Shown one piece after another: positions 32,870 through 64,000 of a stretch of 64,000 nucleotides of DNA. Positions within the stretch are counted from its first letter, which is position 1, and every line of letters begins with the position of its first letter. A program made the translations under genes and the position numbers. Source of the stretch: Neckera pumila (lineage: Eukaryota; Streptophyta; Bryopsida; Hypnales; Neckeraceae); assembly GCA_963969595.1 (NCBI GenBank), contig OZ018417.1, forward strand, positions 16,432,501 to 16,496,500. Reading direction: 5' to 3'. The notes beneath the pieces are model-generated. The model did not search any database and was not told where the DNA came from. It saw only the letters and a list, made by a program, of their open reading frames with translations.

Positions 32870-33937
32870 ATGGGAAACCACCAAAGCAGCGACAAAGCCC
32901 GGGACAAGGACGCAGTGCTCCAAAACCTCTGGAAGGCACAGCGTGCGATACCAGTGGTACCATTGAGCCCTAATCTCGACGCTCTCTGCGTTCTCACCAA
33001 GCATAGCAACGGCTACCACGATGTCGGCAATGTCATTAGTTTAAACAAACCAGGGCAACACCAGGTCCTCTCCCCGCGTGAGCAGGAGAATTCCCTCACC
33101 ACAAATAGCATGGGCACGCAGTCCTACACCATCGCAGACAGCCACGGTGCAGTTGCAACCAAGCTCACAGACGCACCGGCATGGTTCAAGAACGCCACGT
33201 CAATCGAGGTTCATATCCCCGAGTGTTGCGTACGTGAGTATAACATGAAGAACTGGGACCACATGGTTTCCCAATTCAGTCCCGACATGCAAAAGGTAAA
33301 CTCCAAGCTTAAGAATCTGGACCGGAGCAGCGAGCGGGAGCTTTTCATTGTGCAGAAAGTGGTGCTGGTGTCTCATATTACAATCACCGCGACGTATACC
33401 ACGAGTGCAGGTCCAGATGTCCCATCTCCAGTAAAATTGCCATCAGGGTTACAAATCGAACCTAGAATTCTTGGCGGAGGCACCGTCGAATTCACGATTT
33501 CGGGCACTCAGAAGGAGCAGAAGCTTCCGATTGCTTTCTCGGGGTTTAAATACACGTACGACAAGTTTGGTGAATTGAAAGCAGAGCCTCGGACTCAAGC
33601 TGATACGGCGGGCGCTAGTTCCAGTCATGGTGAACACGACGAGGACGTCGAGGACGAGGACGAACAAGATGACGAAACTGAGGACGATGAAGAGGACGTC
33701 GCGGCCGATGACGCAAACATGGGCGATTTCTTGGACGATGGGGATTGGTGCGCGCAAATTGTTTCAGAGTATGATCCCACTGAACATGAGATCTTTGGTA
33801 AATGTGATGAAGGTGATGGACCTCCTCCTCCAGGGCCTCCTCCAGGACCTCCTCCTCCAGGACCTCCTCCAGGACCTCCTGGCACACCTGCAGGATCGCC
33901 GCCCGGATCACCTCAGGATCTGGAAGACATCGATTGA
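32870..33937 (+). CDS. Myristoylation-signal protein with acidic tail, paralogue 1
   Basis: Intronless 355-residue ORF starting MGNHQSS. Gly2 and Ser6 form a good N-myristoylation signal, so membrane attachment is likely. Residues about 25-235 look like a beta-rich globular domain; key segments are ELFIVQKVVLVSHITITATY (about 156-175) and LPIAFSGFKYTYDKFG (about 219-234). A strongly acidic region (about 255-295) and a Pro/Gly run (about 317-340, PPPPGPPPGPPPPG) follow. It is about 45-50% similar by eye to the ORF at 38917, so the two are tandem duplicates. I know no family with certainty. The order of segments weakly recalls the pore-forming domain of gasdermins, including the fungal type; this is a low-confidence idea. 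Apart from the tail, no feature suggests a transposon origin. Confidence 0.8.
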   Translation: MGNHQSSDKARDKDAVLQNLWKAQRAIPVVPLSPNLDALCVLTKHSNGYHDVGNVISLNKPGQHQVLSPREQENSLTTNSMGTQSYTIADSHGAVATKLTDAPAWFKNATSIEVHIPECCVREYNMKNWDHMVSQFSPDMQKVNSKLKNLDRSSERELFIVQKVVLVSHITITATYTTSAGPDVPSPVKLPSGLQIEPRILGGGTVEFTISGTQKEQKLPIAFSGFKYTYDKFGELKAEPRTQADTAGASSSHGEHDEDVEDEDEQDDETEDDEEDVAADDANMGDFLDDGDWCAQIVSEYDPTEHEIFGKCDEGDGPPPPGPPPGPPPPGPPPGPPGTPAGSPPGSPQDLEDID

Positions 33938-38916: not shown

Positions 38917-39960
38917 ATGGGAAACCTCCATAGCTATGACAAGGACCCCGTCGTCCGACACCTCCGGAAGACCCTCCGTGCGACTCCAGTCCTCCCCGTC
39001 GACCCCAACCTCGCTCCTCTCCGCGTTCTTACGAAGGACAAAGACGGCTACCACAACGTCGGTAGTGTTTATAGTTTATGCAAACAAGGAGCTGGCAAGA
39101 ACTCGTTACGAGGTCTCCTAAACCCCATTTTTTTCCAAACCTTCACCGGATTACGAGAGAAGTACTTCACCACCGGAAGCACCGGCTCGCAGACCTACAA
39201 CATCTCAGACGCCCACGGTGCGATTGCCAAGCTCTTAGTCGGGGAAGCGAACGCAGCGGCGTGGTTTTCCAGAGCCAAGTCGATCGATGTATACATTCCG
39301 GAGTGCTGGGTCAGCGAGTTTAAAATTGAGAACTGGGATGAGATGCTTCAACACTTCGACCCCGATGTGAATAAATCTTTTCTGGGGGAGCCCGAGTGGA
39401 ACGGCAAGCGGAAGCTGTATATCGTGCAGAAAGTGGTGCTGGTTTCCCATGTGCAGATCACCGCGAGGTACAAGACCACTGCTGGACTGGACTTCAAACT
39501 ACCGGAGGTGGTGCCTGGGGGCAAGGTGCAGACCGAAGTGAAAGTTCATGGTGAGGAATCCGTCATTTTCACTCTGTTGGCCACTAAGAAGAATCAGAAG
39601 CTTCCGATTGCGTTTTCTGGGTTTCAATATACTTATGACAAATTTGGTGTTCGGGAAGAAAAGCCGGGGAAGCTAACTCGGAATCAACCGGATATGGCGG
39701 CCCGTGTGGCGGGCGCTAGTTCCAGTGATGATGAGGACAATGAAAAGGATGAGGATGATGAGGTCGTTGATGAGGATACTGCGGCGAATGATGGAGACAT
39801 AGGTGATTTCTTCGAGGACGAAGACGACGACTGGTATATCAGTATAATTTCTAGCCATGACCATGACGAGGAAGATGATGATCCAGCGCCGGATCCTGCA
39901 TCGCCTGCTGGATCGCCTCCACGGGATCTGAAAGAAACCAATTCAAGTATTCAGCATTGA
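38917..39960 (+). CDS. Myristoylation-signal protein with acidic tail, paralogue 2
   Basis: Intronless 347-residue ORF starting MGNLHSY, again with Gly2 and Ser6. It aligns with paralogue 1 along the globular part: shared segments include YNISDAHGA, VYIPECWVSEFKIENWDEM, KLYIVQKVVLVSH and LPIAFSGFQYTYDKFG. The tail is acidic (EDEDDDWYISII) but lacks the long Pro/Gly run, ending with a short SPAGSPPRD. It has a longer N-terminal linker (about residues 55-80) than paralogue 1. Conservation of the body and divergence of the tail suggest that selection acts on the body. The gasdermin-like pattern (beta strands around YIVQKVV and a following basic/aromatic strand region) is present here too, at low confidence. 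It is convergent with the NLR gene at 42394-47294. Confidence 0.8.
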   Translation: MGNLHSYDKDPVVRHLRKTLRATPVLPVDPNLAPLRVLTKDKDGYHNVGSVYSLCKQGAGKNSLRGLLNPIFFQTFTGLREKYFTTGSTGSQTYNISDAHGAIAKLLVGEANAAAWFSRAKSIDVYIPECWVSEFKIENWDEMLQHFDPDVNKSFLGEPEWNGKRKLYIVQKVVLVSHVQITARYKTTAGLDFKLPEVVPGGKVQTEVKVHGEESVIFTLLATKKNQKLPIAFSGFQYTYDKFGVREEKPGKLTRNQPDMAARVAGASSSDDEDNEKDEDDEVVDEDTAANDGDIGDFFEDEDDDWYISIISSHDHDEEDDDPAPDPASPAGSPPRDLKETNSSIQH

Positions 39961-42393: not shown

Positions 42394-45300
42394 TCAGAAA
42401 ACGTTTTTAACCCCGAGAAACTTGGACCTACCTTGAGTAAAAAAACTGAACCAGTGCTGGCACCAGATACAAGCGCAGCCCCTGTGGCCAAAGGTATGCC
42501 CACATTTTTCTAGAATCTCTGAGAGATACGTAAACTCATTCTCTATCTTATCGCCTTCCCTAATCCAAAGTAAGGCTTGAAAGACGCTATCACTCACCTC
42601 ATCCTTTCTATGTAAAGCTCGCGTGAGGATATCAAGCCCGTGAGGTGAATCAACGATCGCTTTGTGTGTTGAAGGTGTGACACACATGTTGGAAAGTGTG
42701 GCTGCCGCACAAGCACCACAAGCATTAACATCGCCCTTGTCGATGCAACGGAGGAGGACAGGAACACCACCGCATCTCACAATAGCGTGCCTTGTTTGCA
42801 TGTGGTTGCCCATGGTGTAAATGATTCGAATGGCCATGTTGAACCGCGGGCTCATGAATGGCTCGTTCTTCGCCAAGGTCACAACTCTGACTATCCCAAA
42901 AGACAAACGTCTCTGCTCCTTGTTGCTAGGGTCATAGAGAGATGTGGTATTCACAAGCATACCTCGCCTGTGCGACCAGTATGGCCCATCAGGATTATCT
43001 GCCGTCGAATCCACTTCATCATCTTTAATAGTGCCGTCAAAGGGTCGTGGCAGAGCACGAAGATTTGGCGGAAGATTCTCCCAATTAACACCAGTATTGT
43101 AAACATTAAACACTGTCAGGCTGCCCTCTGTCACCAACTTGTCCAGCTCAGCCGGCACAACCGTCAAATTTTTAGAGTTCACGAACCACAAGCAGACGAG
43201 GTTTTTTAGATTCACGAACTCTGCAGGGATCTCCGTAAAATCACCACAAGCACCGAACGAAAGATACTTCAACTTGCTCAAATCACCCAAAGCCCTCGGT
43301 ATCTCCATTATCTGCAGCATGTCACATTCCAGCCTCTCCAAACTGCTCAGCTTTCCCATCGCTTCAGGAAGAGCTCTAAGCTGGTGGCAGTCGTTCAGGC
43401 ATAGATAGGTCAGACTCGTCAGCTCTCCAATCTCAACAGGCAACTCCACTATCCCGCAGCTTTGCATGTTCAATTCCACCAACTTCTTCAGTTTGCCAAC
43501 CTCAGCCGGAATTGCAGTCAGAGAGGAACACCCGGCCATGTTCAGCTTCTCAAGGCTCTCCAGCTGACCAATTTCTCGTGGCAATCGCTCCAGGCCTAAA
43601 CACCAACTTAAATCCAGCTTCTCCAAACACTTCATGTATCCGATTTCTGGAGGTAGTGACACCAGATTCAGATTCGACGTCAAAAACAGCATGCGTAAAT
43701 GCGTCAAACATCTGAAAAGGATGGCATCGCTCGGGTGGAATGTCTTTATCTCACTCTTCGCTATCACCATCTTCTCGGTCTCAAAATCGTCCTCAGAATC
43801 TCCTGATCCAACATTCTGAGAAATTCCCCACTCCTCTGGTAGCCTGCTATTGCTCAACTCCCATGCGAACAGCCTCTTCCTCTTCTTGAGGGACTGCTCT
43901 TCAACTAGCTTCAAGGCGAGGGCTCTGAAAATGTCGTGCACGTGGCACCAGTAACCGACGATCTTCACCAAACACCTTTGCTCCAGTTCTTCGAGTATCC
44001 TGTACGCCCCATCCTCTGTAATACCAGGTTTGGTCCACATGTCCATGAGCACGGCAATTTCAATCTCCTCCCGCTCGGGAAATGCTGCAAAGTCCAGAAA
44101 GTAGTCCTTGAAGTCAATCCCTTCACCAGATACAGGGTCACTCTCAGGGAGATCATCATAGCTGATCCTCACTTGCTTGATCAGGTTCTGATATTTTGTC
44201 GACTCTTCGTCACCCGCGTTTTCGGCCGTGACGTGTTTAAGCCGATCTCGAACTTTTTGCCACGACTCAATAGACCTTTTACCCCATCGATCGGCACCAA
44301 TGGTCGCGAGCAGGATTGGCATGTTACCACAAGCAGCAATTACTTCGTCCACAACAACTTTCAAGTTGTTGTCCATCGGCATTTTGCCGTTTACGAACGC
44401 CTTAGAACAGAACAACGTTCTAGCATCCTCATCCTTCAGAACATCCAGTTTTTCAATTTGCTCATCTGTGTCTAGTTTTGCCAACTCCGCAGGTTTCCTA
44501 CTAGTGATGATGCACTTGCTCTCTTGAGGGAACAACTTCATGAAGGAGTCTCCCAGCAGCCTGTCCACGTGGTTCTTCTCCCAGACATCGTCTAAAAAAA
44601 GCAGCACCCTCCTCAGTTTTGATAGTTTTCGCTTGAGCTCCTCTTGTAAAAGCTTCTCCGTGTCTAGTTCCTTCGAAGGCATCTCTTTGCAAATCTCTAA
44701 GAGCAAACGTCTTTGACAGTCGATAATGTTAGGATGTCGTTTGACAGGAATCCAATAGACGCGGTGGTCGTAGTAGTTTTTGATATCTTCATCCTCAAGC
44801 AGTGAGTTAGCTAGCGTGGTCTTCCCTATTCCACCCATTCCAGCAACACCGAATGTTTCACCTCCCGTTATCCCTGCAACTGATGCGGCCTTTGTCTCTC
44901 TTTTCAACAACCAGCTTTTGAGTTTCTTACGGTGGGAATCCTGTCCAACAATAATGTCTGTTCGATCTGCAAGCAAATAGCATTACAAAAGTCTATCAGA
45001 ATGTAACAATGGTCACCTGCAAAATCAATGAAATCTCAACAGTGAAATAGCAGTAGGACAACAGAGACACATCTTTTGCCTCGGAATTTTATAGCACACA
45101 AGAAAGACCGGATTATGTGGTTATTGCGCTGTTTCAAATGCATGAACCATCTTCTAAACCAATCTTCAACGTAAATACTTCTGGTCCAGATCTTCGTATA
45201 CCATTCTGTCAACTCCCTATACCACAAAAAAAAAAGCAGCAAACAAGAAGTTTCATCTGCTCTATACTCCAGAGGTAGTCAATAAAAGACGCCCAAAGTG

Positions 45301-47294
45301 AAAAATTTGGACAATACCGGGAGTCCAAAATAATTGTTCAAACTATAGCTAAGACTCAGCACAAGAGAAGATGTTGGATAATTCCTAAACTTATATATCT
45401 GGCTTCATTGTGCACTCTAGACTTCTAGAAGACTTTTCCTTATTCAGAGACCATGGAACGTACCACAATCGCGAAGTTGCTTCCTGATGAAGCGCAGCAA
45501 ATCAGTAAATATGCTGTCGTCGAGAGTTTCTGGCCTACATATATCAAAATGATTGCGCGACGAACATTTCTCTACTATCGTATTCACCTCTGTTGCATAC
45601 TGCTGTGCAGCCACCAAATTTATTTTCTGCACAAAACAAAAAATTCATAATAACGAACTCAGTAAATACAATACCTCTATGACAAATAAAACTAGTTGAG
45701 AAAACCAGCCACACCTCAAAAACTGAATCCGAGGAGCAAGCCAGCCACACCACTATAACTGAGAGGCAACTACGAAACCACCTTCTACCACTGGTCAATC
45801 TCAAAGTATCGATCACCGAGTTCTCGTAAGCCAAGCAAGTGGTGACTATAGCGGGGAACTTACGGAACCATATGCTTCTTTTCCTTCCTCAAAAGACAGG
45901 GTGATTTCCTTGTACTTTTTGCAGAAATTCTGGCGTGCTGCTTGCATTGCTCCTGCAGATTTCATAGCCTCTTCAATCTCTGATTTCCTCAAAACAGACA
46001 GATTGCCTTTCTCCCGCGTGAGTGCACTTTCTAATGCCAGGAGTGAGAAGTTCTTGGCTCCTGAATGCAAATCATATGGCACCCCGTAGAATACAATCCC
46101 TCTTAACCATTTCTTGAGATTTCGAACGGATTCTTCCTTGCTATTCAGAACATCCTGGATGAGCAGACCCCCCAATCCATGCGCTATGAATATCAAAGGC
46201 TTTGTAGCCAGCGTTCCGAGATCCTTTCGTACCTGCTCAGCCAGCTCGTTCAATTTCCGCTTACTTGTCTCAGGCTCAGGCTTGTCAGTAGACTCGGAAT
46301 ACTTCAAGCAAAACACACGCATTGGAATACCACCCAGTGCCTCCGGTAGCCACTCCACAGGCCAGCAGACTGGAGTCGCAGATTGTGTAAACCAAGAGGA
46401 TAGAGCTGCTGCAGGATATCGCACGCTGTCACCAAACTCGTAGCCATGGAATAGGACTATGTCCAGCTCTGGAGCTTGATCTGGTGTTTGGAAAACCAGC
46501 GGCATCCGCTTGCCAAATTGGTCAGGTGTTCTCCAGAAAAGTTTGTGGTCCAAAGTGCTCTGGACAGATACTGTCCGACGAAAGTTGGCCTCGTTGACAA
46601 TTTCCCTGACATCTTTGTCATTGTGGTTCTGATGAAGTGAATCAATAAGAGCCGGGACGAAAACAGTTTTATGACATGGATCTGGCCCGTCAACGTTTTC
46701 TTCCTCAGATGAAAATACAGTCAAAAAATCTTTGCTTGGGTCTTGATGTCTGCCTTCCGTGTTCAGGGGGATGGTAGACGATTCTCCAGCTACTGAATTG
46801 AGAGTGTGCTTATCAGAATTCCAGATGCGCGAATTGATGAAGAATACTTTAGGCTTTCCATCCAACGCCTTACATCTCTTAAATGGCTCGATGATATCCT
46901 CCATAACGTATACTTTGTTACCCTCAAGATCTTGGATGAATTGACGGCCATCGCAATCCCTGTTACCGTATGCGCTTACAAAGCATACAAAGCAATTTGT
47001 AAATTCGCTATTGAGAAAGTTGCTAGAAAACAATTTCATGTCAGTTTTCAATTCATCAGCGCTTTTATCCACCAAAATCTTGACGCGGAAACCTAGCATT
47101 TTAAAGAGCTGGTTCATCCTCTTTCTGTCATCAACCGCCCGTTGGCGAGGTACGCCTTCCCATTTCTCATAGCTCACAATGACCGCATCGACTGGGAACG
47201 CACCTGGATGTCCTTCACACCAACCTTCAGGGTATGAGATGAGATATTCTCCCTTCTCCTTTTCTAAGTTTCTTAATTGTCTGGCAGTCGGCAT
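42394..47294 (-). CDS. HNL-type NLR: caspase-like, hydrolase-like, NB-ARC, LRR, ARM
   Basis: Exons 47294-45864, 45626-45464 and 44966-42394; phases fit and give 1388 residues. Start: first in-frame ATG (MPTARQL). Residues 34-160 resemble a caspase p20: RMNQLFKMLGFRV, NCFVCFVSAYG, KPKVFFINSR. Residues 208-255 resemble p10 (FVPALIDSLHQNH, QSTLDHKLFW). The catalytic His and Cys positions appear as Tyr109 and Arg156. Residues 275-470 resemble a SERAC1-like alpha/beta-hydrolase (DIVLFHG, CWPVEWLP, FIAHGLGG), with Gly373 instead of the nucleophile Ser. NB-ARC: P-loop GVAGMGGIGKTT (571-582), kinase-2 LLFLDDVW (653-660), VHD instead of MHD (874-876). About eight LRRs of SLPPEIG type (953-1153) and ARM-like repeats (1243-1328) follow. 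Probable intracellular immune receptor; hydrolase-NLRs are known from Marchantia. Both enzyme-like domains look inactive. Confidence 0.88.
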
Positions 47295-49819: not shown

Positions 49820-52565
<2,746 letters not shown>

Positions 52566-61295: not shown

Positions 61296-64000
61296 CTACT
61301 GTGGCATGCCACCACCTAAGGCGCCCCCGGGCACTGGTCTGGCCAATCCTGGCAGTAGCCCAGGAGGGGTGTTATCGGACGAAATCATGGGCCTCCCCCC
61401 CAACATCACTTGAGGAGGGGTCATATTAATCTCTTGAGGACGCCCACCAAGCATATGAGGTGCAGTTCCTGCAATCATCATCTGTCTTTGGAAATGGCCC
61501 TGTTGCATGGTCATGGCTCCTGCGTTCATGGAATTCGCCAGCCCTTGGTACATTTGCTGTTGCACGAACGCTGCATGGCTGGGCATTGGGTGGTGGTTGG
61601 CAGCACCAACTGCACCTGCTTGGAAACCATGGCCATACAATTGCCCTGTAAAAGGAGGAGGAGGAGGAGGAGGCGCTTGCGCAAGGACAAGCGCCTGCTG
61701 CTGCTGCTGCCTGGGCGGAGATGGGGGCGGGTCATTAGAAGAATTAGAAGCTCCACCCAGATGCTGGGCTGCTATCCGCGCATCATCCGCAAAAAAATTT
61801 AATCGGTCACGGTCCACTGTCTCACATTCTTTTCCTATCGCGCCTTCTAACTCGTTCAGGAATTTTATCTTCAGCTCCAGTTTTTTTACCTGTAGGGAAA
61901 CACAGAAAGTCGTTAACCCCAGGAAATTTTCTGAGTATTGAAGGTTATATGTGTCAAAGTACCAAGGCAATGCATGAAAGCACCGTCCGAGCTGTGCAAA
62001 GAAAATCATTGGCATCTACTAGTGGAAAAATGGTTCCCCCCAGTTGTTCCAAAATCTAGCTGTCTTACACCCTGCCAATTGTAACGCAGCTAAGTGTTCT
62101 AGTAAGTCTTCGGGAGGTAGATTCTCTACTAGCGAAACAAGCCAAGGCACGGGCAGTGCATCTAGCTTGCTAACAATGCTCACTTTGTCAGGCCTTGCAA
62201 AACCTGTTGTATTGCAATATGAGAATGTCAAAGTGCCCACAAGTACATCAGAGCCCCTGCAATGAAGAGGCTATGGAAATTACCTGTTGATCAATGACAA
62301 CTGTGAGTAATCGCTGCATCTCACGCTCTTCCTGATCAGCCAGGAGCTTGGCTTTCACTGATGCAGCTGCAATGGCACTTGCTGCCGCCCGCTTCACACG
62401 CCCTGCCACTTTAGCTTCCTCCGGGACATCCAAACTTTCCGGAGCATCTGATTTTCGAACAATTTCCTTACCTGTATGCATCATTCAGGTTCTCTATATA
62501 AGTGGCAAGCAGCACAATCCCATTCCACACAAAGACCAAGTTACGCTAATCCGTATGTGCCCAAGCTAAAGATTTCAAGTTCACAGTGAAAAGTTGGTAG
62601 TTCATTTTAGTAGCTCTTAAAATATAATTCTGATATTAGAAAACGTAGGGCATGATTTCTTAATTGAATTGGTACATTCGGCTACCTTTTCCTAAATGAT
62701 TTGCTTCAATTCCTAGAGATAGAGAAGCGGCCACTTTTCTCCATTTCGACACTTAGGGTTTCGATAAGGGGAGACTGACTAACCAGATGTACATCACCAC
62801 AAGTACTTACTTTCTTGAAAATCAGGTCTAGTTCAAGATAGAAATAACAATATCACCACAAAAATCCATGAAAAATTGAAAGATAAGGCTGAATCTCGAA
62901 CCTAAATTGGGTTCTTGTCGAGGTTCTTGTTGAGTGGGTGCGTCATCATCATTTTGAGCAGAAGCCGTGCCATCAGACACAGGCAGTTTGGCCCCAGCGG
63001 CCGGGCTCGAGCCAGCATCACCTGTTGCTGCGGTCTCATCTCCACTTTGCGTCTCCTCATCTCCCTGACCTGATCTGCATATTTCAAACACGAGAATTCA
63101 ATTGGGATGCGCTTTAGGTCGCAAGTTGTGAGACGTATATCTAAAGCAATTCAAAGCAAAATACGAGAGCTATAACTAACTCAACGATTAATTGAGACAG
63201 ATCCTATCTACACCACTACCACCTTTGTTGTCCAGTTCCAATTTATCCACTAACTCCCAAACTAAAATAAAAAAGGTCATCAATTATAGTAACTTTATAA
63301 ACATAATTCTATCATTAAGAAATGAAGGACAAGATTCATGCTTTCTATTGACACATTCAGTTCACCATACTTACAGCTGCCAAAATATTGATTCATTCAA
63401 ACTCCTAAAGATATGAAAGCAGCCACTTCGGGGCATTTAGAAGTTAAGACCTGTCCGGATGCTGTGAAGTACTTGGATCAACATCAGCAACTGGATCTTC
63501 CAGTATCATAGCAGTCCCTGCCGCAAGATGAACTCCGGGGTCCTTCATTGTCAGTGCAGCTAAAGCAGCCAGAGCAGCCTCTCCACCCAATTTTGACCCA
63601 ATCATAGTCGCAAGGAAAGACATCTATAGCCCACCAGAAACGGTGTCAACAAAATTTATTACAGCTACAGAGTGATATCCTGAAACAAGAGTCAACTCAA
63701 AATTGCTTGAAATGACCAATTTAATTCATCACAATGTGAAAAATCAATAATTCAGTTGAAGTCAGATTCTGTGTGAAGAACATTGGTCAAAAAGTAAATA
63801 AAATTGAAACCAGAAAAGTCCCCGTGTAGGGTCATTACTGAACAAAGGCACTCATAGGGGGTGCACTGCCGCGGTAGATCTTATAAGAAACAACGTACCT
63901 GAGCCATGACAGGATTGCCAGCTTCTGCAAAGGCTGCAAGATTTGGTGGCAGCACAAGCTCTCCAGTTGGGGACTCGACTGCATTGTCCGTGCTTGTTAC
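61296..64000 (-). CDS. SWI3C: SWI/SNF subunit SWI3C, C-terminal exons (partial)
   Basis: Minus-strand exons 63899->64000, 63623-63451, 63074-62902, 62471-62284 and 61889-61296. Borders are GT-AG and phases fit, giving the last 409 residues. The 5' part, which should hold the SWIRM and SANT domains, lies beyond the right edge. Visible parts: NLAAFAEAGNPVMAQMSFLA (the conserved region after SANT), an acidic linker, and the coiled coil RLLTVVIDQQVKKLELKIKF, which continues through CETVDRDRLNFF. A long Gln/Pro/Gly/Met-rich tail follows (PPPPPPPFTGQLYGHG; MLGGRPQ twice). Sequence order and the coiled coil fit SWI3C (CHB3) better than SWI3A/B/D. It is a core subunit of BRM/MINU-type chromatin-remodelling complexes in the nucleus. 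The GC-rich tail includes a CTG/CAG run (about 61696-61712) encoding Gln. Confidence 0.92.

What the first reader, a model, noticed from the sequence alone, without database searches (positions are those of the whole stretch)
42394..47294. Plant NLR with N-terminal caspase-fold (p20+p10) domain ahead of the hydrolase
The receptor's first 255 residues show, in order, motifs typical of animal-type caspases rather than plant metacaspases: RMNQLFKMLGFRV, NCFVCFVSAYG, KPKVFFINSR, then p10-like FVPALIDSLHQNH and QSTLDHKLFW. The His of the S-H-G motif is Tyr (109) and the Cys of Q-A-C-x-G is Arg (156), so it would be a pseudo-caspase. The NLR class with a hydrolase (HNL) is known from liverworts; I do not know of a described caspase-like domain at its N-terminus. 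It could serve as an interaction or signalling module.
Basis: partly seen in the sequence, partly recalled or inferred. Interest (0 to 1): 0.9.

Follow-up and report, generated by a model that had tools for sequence, protein, structure and literature searches.

The report
Moss immune receptors with animal-type caspases
A moss immune receptor carries a disabled copy of the animal cell-death protease caspase at its front end, and a sister receptor on the same chromosome carries a copy whose catalytic residues are intact, although caspases are said to exist only in animals.

Summary

Relatives take it further. The nearest named kin are from the moss Ceratodon, not liverworts. The 25 caspase domains aligned form two types: 12 pseudo (His to Tyr in 12 of 12) and 13 apparently active (His and Cys in 13 of 13). 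The two active-type genes read nearly whole join the caspase directly to NB-ARC-LRR. The window's own genome has one of each type, 87 kb apart on one chromosome. The active-type profile scores 54-67 bits on caspase-8 and under 2 on three metacaspases. The pair shares a converted LRR tract.

Best reading: a moss caspase/pseudo-caspase NLR pair in which NB-ARC assembly brings caspase domains together; the window gene is the non-catalytic partner. Protease activity, Asp specificity and joint action are inferred. Nine literature searches found no description.

The parts
45864..47294 (-). exon 1: short N-terminus, pseudo-caspase domain (res 37-255), first part of the hydrolase
   Evidence: open frame from ATG at 47294, GTAAGT donor; Pfam
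46815..47186 (-). caspase p20-like part, about residues 37-160
46530..46736 (-). caspase p10-like part, about residues 187-255
   Evidence: strands and helices of the model
47145..47147 (-). Arg50, aligned with the p20 Arg of the caspase S1 pocket
   Evidence: alignments, (pocket role recalled)
46968..46970 (-). Tyr109 at the catalytic His position
46827..46829 (-). Arg156 at the catalytic Cys position
45464..45626 (-). exon 2: end of the hydrolase (NHFDICRP); preceding intron phase 0, following intron phase 1
   Evidence: 68% identical stretch in P0003
46176..46178 (-). Gly373 where four liverwort hydrolases of the alignment have the Ser of GHSxGG
42394..44966 (-). exon 3: NB-ARC, LRR, ARM-like C-terminus, stop
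44152..44856 (-). NB-ARC with intact P-loop (GMGGIGKTT), Walker B (LLFLDDV) and VHD motif
   Evidence: PF00931 E 1e-31; motifs
43201..43701 (-). leucine-rich repeats (approximate)
43300..43911 (-). gene-conversion tract shared with the active partner gene (approximate ends, chosen after seeing the profile)
   Evidence: 69 of 72 fourfold sites identical inside, 89 of 157 outside (sums over the windows)
42568..42897 (-). ARM-like repeat region (Pfam hits under the curated cut-offs here; Arm passes its cut-off in P0003 and P0014)

Best explanation
The gene is the non-catalytic half of an old pair of moss NLR receptors. One half (C10:16384477-16388114 in this genome; KC19_5G008800 in Ceratodon) has an animal-type caspase with intact His/Cys fused directly to NB-ARC-LRR-ARM. 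The other half, the window gene, has a pseudo-caspase and a nucleophile-less hydrolase on the same chassis. Proposed mechanism: ligand sensing frees NB-ARC to bind ATP and oligomerise; caspase domains are brought together and activated by induced proximity, a one-protein version of the apoptosome or inflammasome; the window protein joins the complex as sensor or regulator, its pseudo-caspase pairing with the active one much as c-FLIP does with caspase-8. Shown here: domains, fold, residue states, co-occurrence in one genome, gene conversion. Inferred: that the unnamed organism is a moss (from nearest kin), protease activity, substrate, hetero-assembly, immune role.
For: Fold and family. Animal caspases rather than metacaspases: the type 1 p20 profile scores 66.7 and 54.3 bits on two vertebrate caspase-8s and 1.8, 1.6 and -0.1 on AtMC4, AtMC9 and Yca1; the all-member profile 60.3 and 48.7 against 1.8, -0.6 and -1.3. 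Among the fetched loci, which hold 8 of this genome's 10 PF00656 matches, the moss profile hits only the two caspase-NLR loci and the metacaspase queries hit only others. Two types: His 13/13, Cys 13/13, p20 Arg 13/13 and p10 Arg 12/12 in type 1, against Tyr 12/12, Cys 9/12, p10 Arg 0/12 and p10 Gln to Pro 12/12 in type 2; type 2 is one clade, support 100/99. All 23 scanned members hit PF00656. Pair: same chromosome here; neighbouring locus tags in Ceratodon; a Tyr-type and a His-type caspase ORF (P0132, P0139) listed with the same longest contig of 116,872 bp from one source, and P0130 and P0133 likewise at 30,696 bp. Concerted evolution: early LRR 93% and 99% within a genome against 79% and 78% between orthologues, while caspase and C-terminal parts are closer between orthologues; fourfold sites 69/72 inside the tract. 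NB-ARC motifs intact.
Against: The Gln of QACRG is Asn in 13 of 13 type 1 sequences and Asp in this genome's copy; the metacaspases shown have Asp there, so Asp specificity is uncertain. 2 of 14 type 1 interdomain linkers, this genome's among them, have no Asp for self-cleavage. The two genes are 87 kb apart and convergent here, not head to head. No expression, proteomic or functional data were available. Most relatives are unnamed metagenomic ORFs and not independent (P0138/P0144 and P0141/P0142 are near copies). The type 2 Cys is kept in 9 of 12, which a purely dead domain would not need. The NB-ARC tree does not fall into two matching types: P0013 and P0015, whose contig lengths equal those of the His-type ORFs P0141 and P0143, group with the window gene (96/99), and P0007 stays unresolved. 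NB-ARC identities are mixed, in Ceratodon partly higher within the genome than between orthologues. The His-type clade has only 80/77 support and long branches meet at the root.
Confidence: 0.6

Rival explanations
1. Integrated decoy: the pseudo-caspase (and dead hydrolase) is bait for pathogen effectors that target a host caspase-like protein; it does not regulate a protease.
For: Both N-terminal enzyme domains lack catalytic residues in the window gene; NLRs with integrated domains are reported as expanded in the mosses Ceratodon and Sphagnum (PMC11218826 passages).
Against: The intact paralogue has the caspase in the executioner position directly before NB-ARC, and the Tyr and Pro replacements are fixed in 12 of 12, more like a specialised partner than a fast-changing bait. 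Both points are inference.
Confidence: 0.2
2. The type 1 caspase is a protease but not Asp-specific, or works as a scaffold only. (This overlaps with the pair reading and can hold beside it.)
For: Asn or Asp replaces the pocket Gln.
Against: His, Cys, the p20 Arg and the Arg after the Cys are kept in 13 of 13 type 1 sequences and the p10 Arg in the 12 that span it.
Confidence: 0.3
3. Gene-model artefact: the caspase exon belongs to a separate gene or to contaminating animal DNA.
For: Splice sites were read by eye; no transcripts were available.
Against: Caspase and the first part of the hydrolase lie in one uninterrupted 477-codon frame; the Ceratodon protein P0003, annotated by others, has the same order; the gene sits in a 23.5 Mb contig.
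Confidence: 0.02
4. Decaying gene: the window copy is a relic of the active type.
For: His, Cys and nucleophile Ser are lost; the catalytic Cys is Arg here though kept in 9 of the 12 pseudo-type sequences.
Against: Long open frames, intact NB-ARC motifs and 12 pseudo-type copies in one well-supported clade speak for a kept function. Selection itself was not measured.
Confidence: 0.08

Closest known systems
Animal caspases (caspase-1, -3, -4, -6, -7, -8, -9, CED-3)
   Same: p20+p10 fold, 16-25% identity in the 50 structural alignments shown; type 1 copies keep His, Cys and both S1 arginines
   Different: found in a plant; fused to NB-ARC-LRR; Gln of QACRG is Asn or Asp; window copy lacks His and Cys
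c-FLIP with caspase-8 (recalled; one chain of the complex entry 3h11 is listed)
   Same: a pseudo-caspase and an active caspase of common descent kept side by side
   Different: here both are N-terminal domains of NLR receptors; no death-effector domain was found; binding untested
Liverwort hydrolase-NLR (HNL; PMC3352924)
   Same: alpha/beta-hydrolase before NB-ARC-LRR; one intron inside the hydrolase in phase 0
   Different: caspase domain in front; second intron in phase 1; Ser nucleophile replaced; moss kin, not liverwort
Plant metacaspases (AtMC4, AtMC9)
   Same: the same Pfam family, PF00656 (one search finds both kinds with it)
   Different: no profile similarity (under 2 bits); separate loci in this genome
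Bacterial NLR-related proteins with caspase N-termini (PMC10952240 passage)
   Same: NTPase receptor with a caspase-type effector domain
   Different: plant NB-ARC-LRR-ARM chassis and animal-type caspase; no prokaryote relative in the one scan made, which used two short patterns

Membership tests
Caspase (C14, animal type) | p20+p10 caspase fold | tested here: met
Caspase (C14, animal type) | catalytic His/Cys dyad | tested here: not met
   window gene Tyr109/Arg156; met in the partner gene C10:16384477-16388114 and in 13 of 13 type 1 sequences
Caspase (C14, animal type) | basic S1 pocket (Arg in p20, Gln before and Arg after Cys, Arg in p10) | tested here: not met
   window gene: p20 Arg kept, p10 Arg and the Arg after Cys lost, Gln to Asn; type 1: the Args kept, Gln replaced
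Caspase (C14, animal type) | cleavage after Asp | not testable with these tools
   needs protein
Metacaspase | p20 sequence similarity to known metacaspases | tested here: not met
   three metacaspases tested; fetched loci of this genome
Hydrolase-NLR (HNL) | alpha/beta-hydrolase N-terminal to NB-ARC and LRR | tested here: met
   Pfam itself does not call the hydrolase in exon 1, the homology is through HNL relatives
Hydrolase-NLR (HNL) | hydrolase is the first domain | tested here: not met
   caspase domain precedes it
Hydrolase-NLR (HNL) | two conserved introns before NBS, both phase 0 | tested here: not met
   phases 0 and 1 by my gene model (criterion from PMC3352924)
NLR receptor | NB-ARC with P-loop, Walker B and MHD-type motif, then LRR | tested here: met
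Paired NLRs | two NLRs encoded together and acting together | tested here: inconclusive
   same chromosome 87 kb apart; neighbouring tags in Ceratodon; joint action not testable

The most novel reading that the evidence does not exclude
Mosses hold a true, Asp-cleaving animal-type caspase built into an NLR: a one-gene plant inflammasome that kills or signals by caspase proteolysis, held in check or aimed by a pseudo-caspase NLR partner. That would end the rule that caspases are confined to animals and add a protease-executed branch to plant NLR immunity.
Probability: 0.45. Interest if true: 0.96.

Novelty: new variant of a known kind. Interest (0 to 1): 0.88.

Why it matters
Two abstracts confine caspases to animals (PMC5756287, PMC10896300), and a review of plant NLR N-termini names coiled-coil, RPW8, TIR, hydrolase and kinase (PMC10952240 passages). 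A moss NLR with an intact-looking animal-type caspase as its N-terminal domain, kept beside a pseudo-caspase sister, contradicts the first and extends the second. It makes an old question directly testable: whether any plant kills cells with a real caspase, as plant caspase-like activities have long suggested (recalled). It also offers a natural pair in which receptor and protease are one molecule.

Tried and rejected
Liverwort HNL as the home of this gene: rejected on nearest relatives, intron phase and the extra domain. Metacaspase origin: rejected. Prokaryotic donor: one scan of genome contigs with alignment A3 matched 47 stretches, none a relative by tblastn; it used two short patterns only, so it is weak evidence. 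NCBIfam scan of four proteins: no caspase family at cut-off; best caspase-type hit 13.4 bits against 140. Partner gene inside the window: none by tblastn; found about 44 kb beyond its left edge. Other copies between the two genes: none at E 1e-3 in the fetched stretches that fill the gap to the window, nor in 10 kb beyond its right edge, and none in the window. Single-sequence AlphaFold: discarded. Deciding from the tree whether the moss caspase came by transfer from an animal: not resolved, as only two vertebrate outgroups were used and long branches meet. A whole-genome search for further NB-ARC relatives of this gene never got an answer, so the number of related NLRs without caspase is unknown. 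Literature: nine searches listed no paper that I could see describing a caspase domain in a plant NLR; the library lacks most subscription journals and preprints. For PMC11218826, PMC3352924, PMC10952240, PMC7145615, PMC11126693, PMC5756287 and PMC10896300 I saw passages only; all other papers only as search listings. The supplements of PMC11218826, which surveyed Ceratodon NLRs and their extra domains, could not be read, and UniRef already names the Ceratodon protein P0003 by its caspase p20 domain, so the domain exists in machine annotation.

Not counted: P0144 has no p10 stretch and was left out of the p10 count; P0042 and P0066 matched the hydrolase only partly and were left out of that alignment, which held 13 sequences. 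The script ended in an error at its last print line, after the identities used here had been printed.
Full report
WHAT IS THERE. The minus strand of 42394-47294 holds three exons (47294-45864, 45626-45464, 44966-42394), 1388 residues with splice sites read from consensus. Pfam finds Peptidase_C14 on residues 37-239 (E 1.4e-18), and NB-ARC (E 1e-31), LRRs and weak ARM hits on exon 3. Between them lies an alpha/beta-hydrolase recognised through hydrolase-NLR relatives, not by Pfam directly.

ANIMAL TYPE OR METACASPASE? A p20 profile of the intact type scores 66.7 and 54.3 bits on two vertebrate caspase-8 sequences and 1.8, 1.6 and -0.1 bits on AtMC4, AtMC9 and Yca1. In the window's own genome (339.5 Mb, 18 contigs) PF00656 has ten matches; the tool's 14 control genomes have none. 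Eight of the ten were fetched as loci with the search. Among all loci held at that point the moss profile hits only the window gene and C10:16384546, and AtMC4 or Yca1 hit L002, L003, L005, L006 and L007 but neither of the two. A ninth match, fetched as L016, is a degenerate metacaspase piece. L008 and the unfetched C2:25053049 lie just 3' of L006 and L005 and cover only the p10 part of the Pfam profile; I take them for p10 exons of those genes, untested.

THE RELATIVES. Search one (window residues 1-500; 7992 candidates scored) found only Ceratodon purpureus KC19_5G008700, P0003. Search two (residues 265-720) found 165 proteins, 120 listed; of these only P0003 and the neighbouring locus tag, KC19_5G008800 (P0014), list PF00656. 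P0014 has no hydrolase: caspase, NB-ARC, LRR, ARM, Peptidase_C14 E 2.4e-25, with motifs SAHG and NACRG. Search three (caspase alignment) found 24: 22 unlabelled ORFs of 209-382 residues, all with PF00656, and then bird and frog caspase-8 at E 2.0e-10 and 1.1e-9. That the unlabelled ORFs and the window are from mosses is inferred from the Ceratodon kin. These searches need shared five-residue words, so absence elsewhere is weak evidence.

TWO TYPES. Of 25 caspase domains aligned, 13 keep His and Cys (13/13 each), the p20 Arg (13/13) and, where the stretch exists, the p10 Arg (12/12). Twelve, the window's among them, have Tyr for His (12/12), Pro for the p10 Gln (12/12) and no p10 Arg (0/12); 9 of 12 still keep the Cys, two have Ile, the window has Arg. 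In the tree the Tyr type is one clade (100/99), the His type less firm (80/77), and long branches make the root unsure. The two Tyr-type genes read in full (window, P0003) have the hydrolase; the two His-type genes read in full or nearly so (P0014, the partner) lack it.

THE PARTNER IN THE SAME GENOME. At C10:16384477-16388114 plus, a caspase exon (SAHG, DSCRG, intact p20 and p10 Arg) and an NB-ARC-LRR-ARM exon join to 1115 residues; its start codon, probably in a further exon upstream, was not found. The window gene is at C10:16474894-16479794 minus, so the two converge, 87 kb apart. A Tyr-type and a His-type caspase ORF (P0132, P0139) share a longest-contig length of 116,872 bp and a source with two NB-ARC ORFs (P0007, P0011), so most likely one contig; P0130 (Tyr type) and P0133 (His type) likewise at 30,696 bp. 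P0011 groups with P0014 (98/100), P0007 is unresolved; and P0013 and P0015, which share contig lengths with His-type P0141 and P0143, group with the window gene. So NB-ARC history is not a plain copy of caspase history.

CONCERTED EVOLUTION. Comparing window gene, partner, P0003 and P0014: in the caspase domain orthologues are closer (52%, 59%) than the two genes within a genome (41%, 36%), and in the C-terminal part too (71%, 75% against 49%, 56%). In the early LRR it is the reverse: 93% and 99% within a genome, 79% and 78% between; NB-ARC is mixed. At DNA level the window gene and its partner have 69 of 72 fourfold sites identical inside about residues 884-1087, and 89 of 157 outside in exon 3 (the tract was chosen after seeing the profile). 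The simplest reading is gene conversion in the presumed sensor, in both mosses, while the heads stay distinct: two different outputs on one sensing surface. It also indicates that the pair is older than the split of the two mosses.

DOUBLY DEAD HEAD. The hydrolase Ser of GHSxGG is Gly in the window gene and P0003. In the alignment of 13 hydrolases Ser is present in 4, all from the liverworts Calypogeia and Riccia, and in none of the other 9 (8 from Ceratodon and the window's). So both enzyme-like domains of the window protein are predicted inactive, while P-loop, Walker B and VHD motifs are intact. A regulator or sensor fits better than an executor.

MECHANISM. Established for other systems (recalled): NB-ARC receptors oligomerise on activation, and initiator caspases are switched on by dimerisation. 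Joined in one protein these give a plain model: receptor assembly concentrates the caspase domains and turns them on. The pseudo-caspase partner would shape this, as c-FLIP does with caspase-8. Residues and co-evolution are shown; activity, substrate, assembly and immune function are inferred. The weak point is the pocket: Asn (13/13) or Asp (this genome) stands where caspases have Gln, and the source I read names that Gln and the Arg after the Cys as the basis of Asp preference in caspase-3 (PMC5756287 passage); the Arg is kept in 13 of 13.

NOVELTY. Abstracts of PMC5756287 and PMC10896300 confine caspases to animals. PMC10952240 lists caspases among bacterial NLR-related N-termini and, in the passages seen, not among plant ones. 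Nine searches turned up no description of this. I rate it a new variant of a known kind (an NLR class with a new executioner-type domain), with the bolder reading in the section on the most novel reading.

Noticed in passing
32870-33937 and 38917-39960, plus strand: Two tandem paralogous ORFs (355 and 347 aa, 47% identical over 276 columns) with no Pfam family at E 0.01; unknown family.
   Followed up: partly
49820-51700, minus strand: DEAD-box helicase with a weak C-terminal zinc knuckle hit, DDX41/RH35-like by recall, upstream of the receptor.
   Followed up: partly
61296-62015, minus strand: Piece of a SWIRM-associated (SWI3-like) protein.
   Followed up: no
P0016-P0022 (Ceratodon hydrolase-NLRs): Ceratodon hydrolase-NLRs lack the Ser nucleophile (Gly, or Asp in P0017; 0 of 9 moss sequences aligned, the window's and P0003 among them), the four liverwort ones aligned keep it; the moss hydrolase class may be non-catalytic as a whole.
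   Followed up: partly
L016 (C10:3726500-3730500): Degenerate metacaspase fragment in the same genome.
   Followed up: partly
9 of 12 pseudo-type sequences: The catalytic Cys is kept although the His is always Tyr; why a dead caspase keeps its Cys is unexplained.
   Followed up: no
P0013, P0015 against P0141, P0143: NB-ARC ORFs that seem to belong to early-branching His-type caspases group with the window gene's NB-ARC, hinting at a third lineage or at exchange of chassis between types.
   Followed up: no
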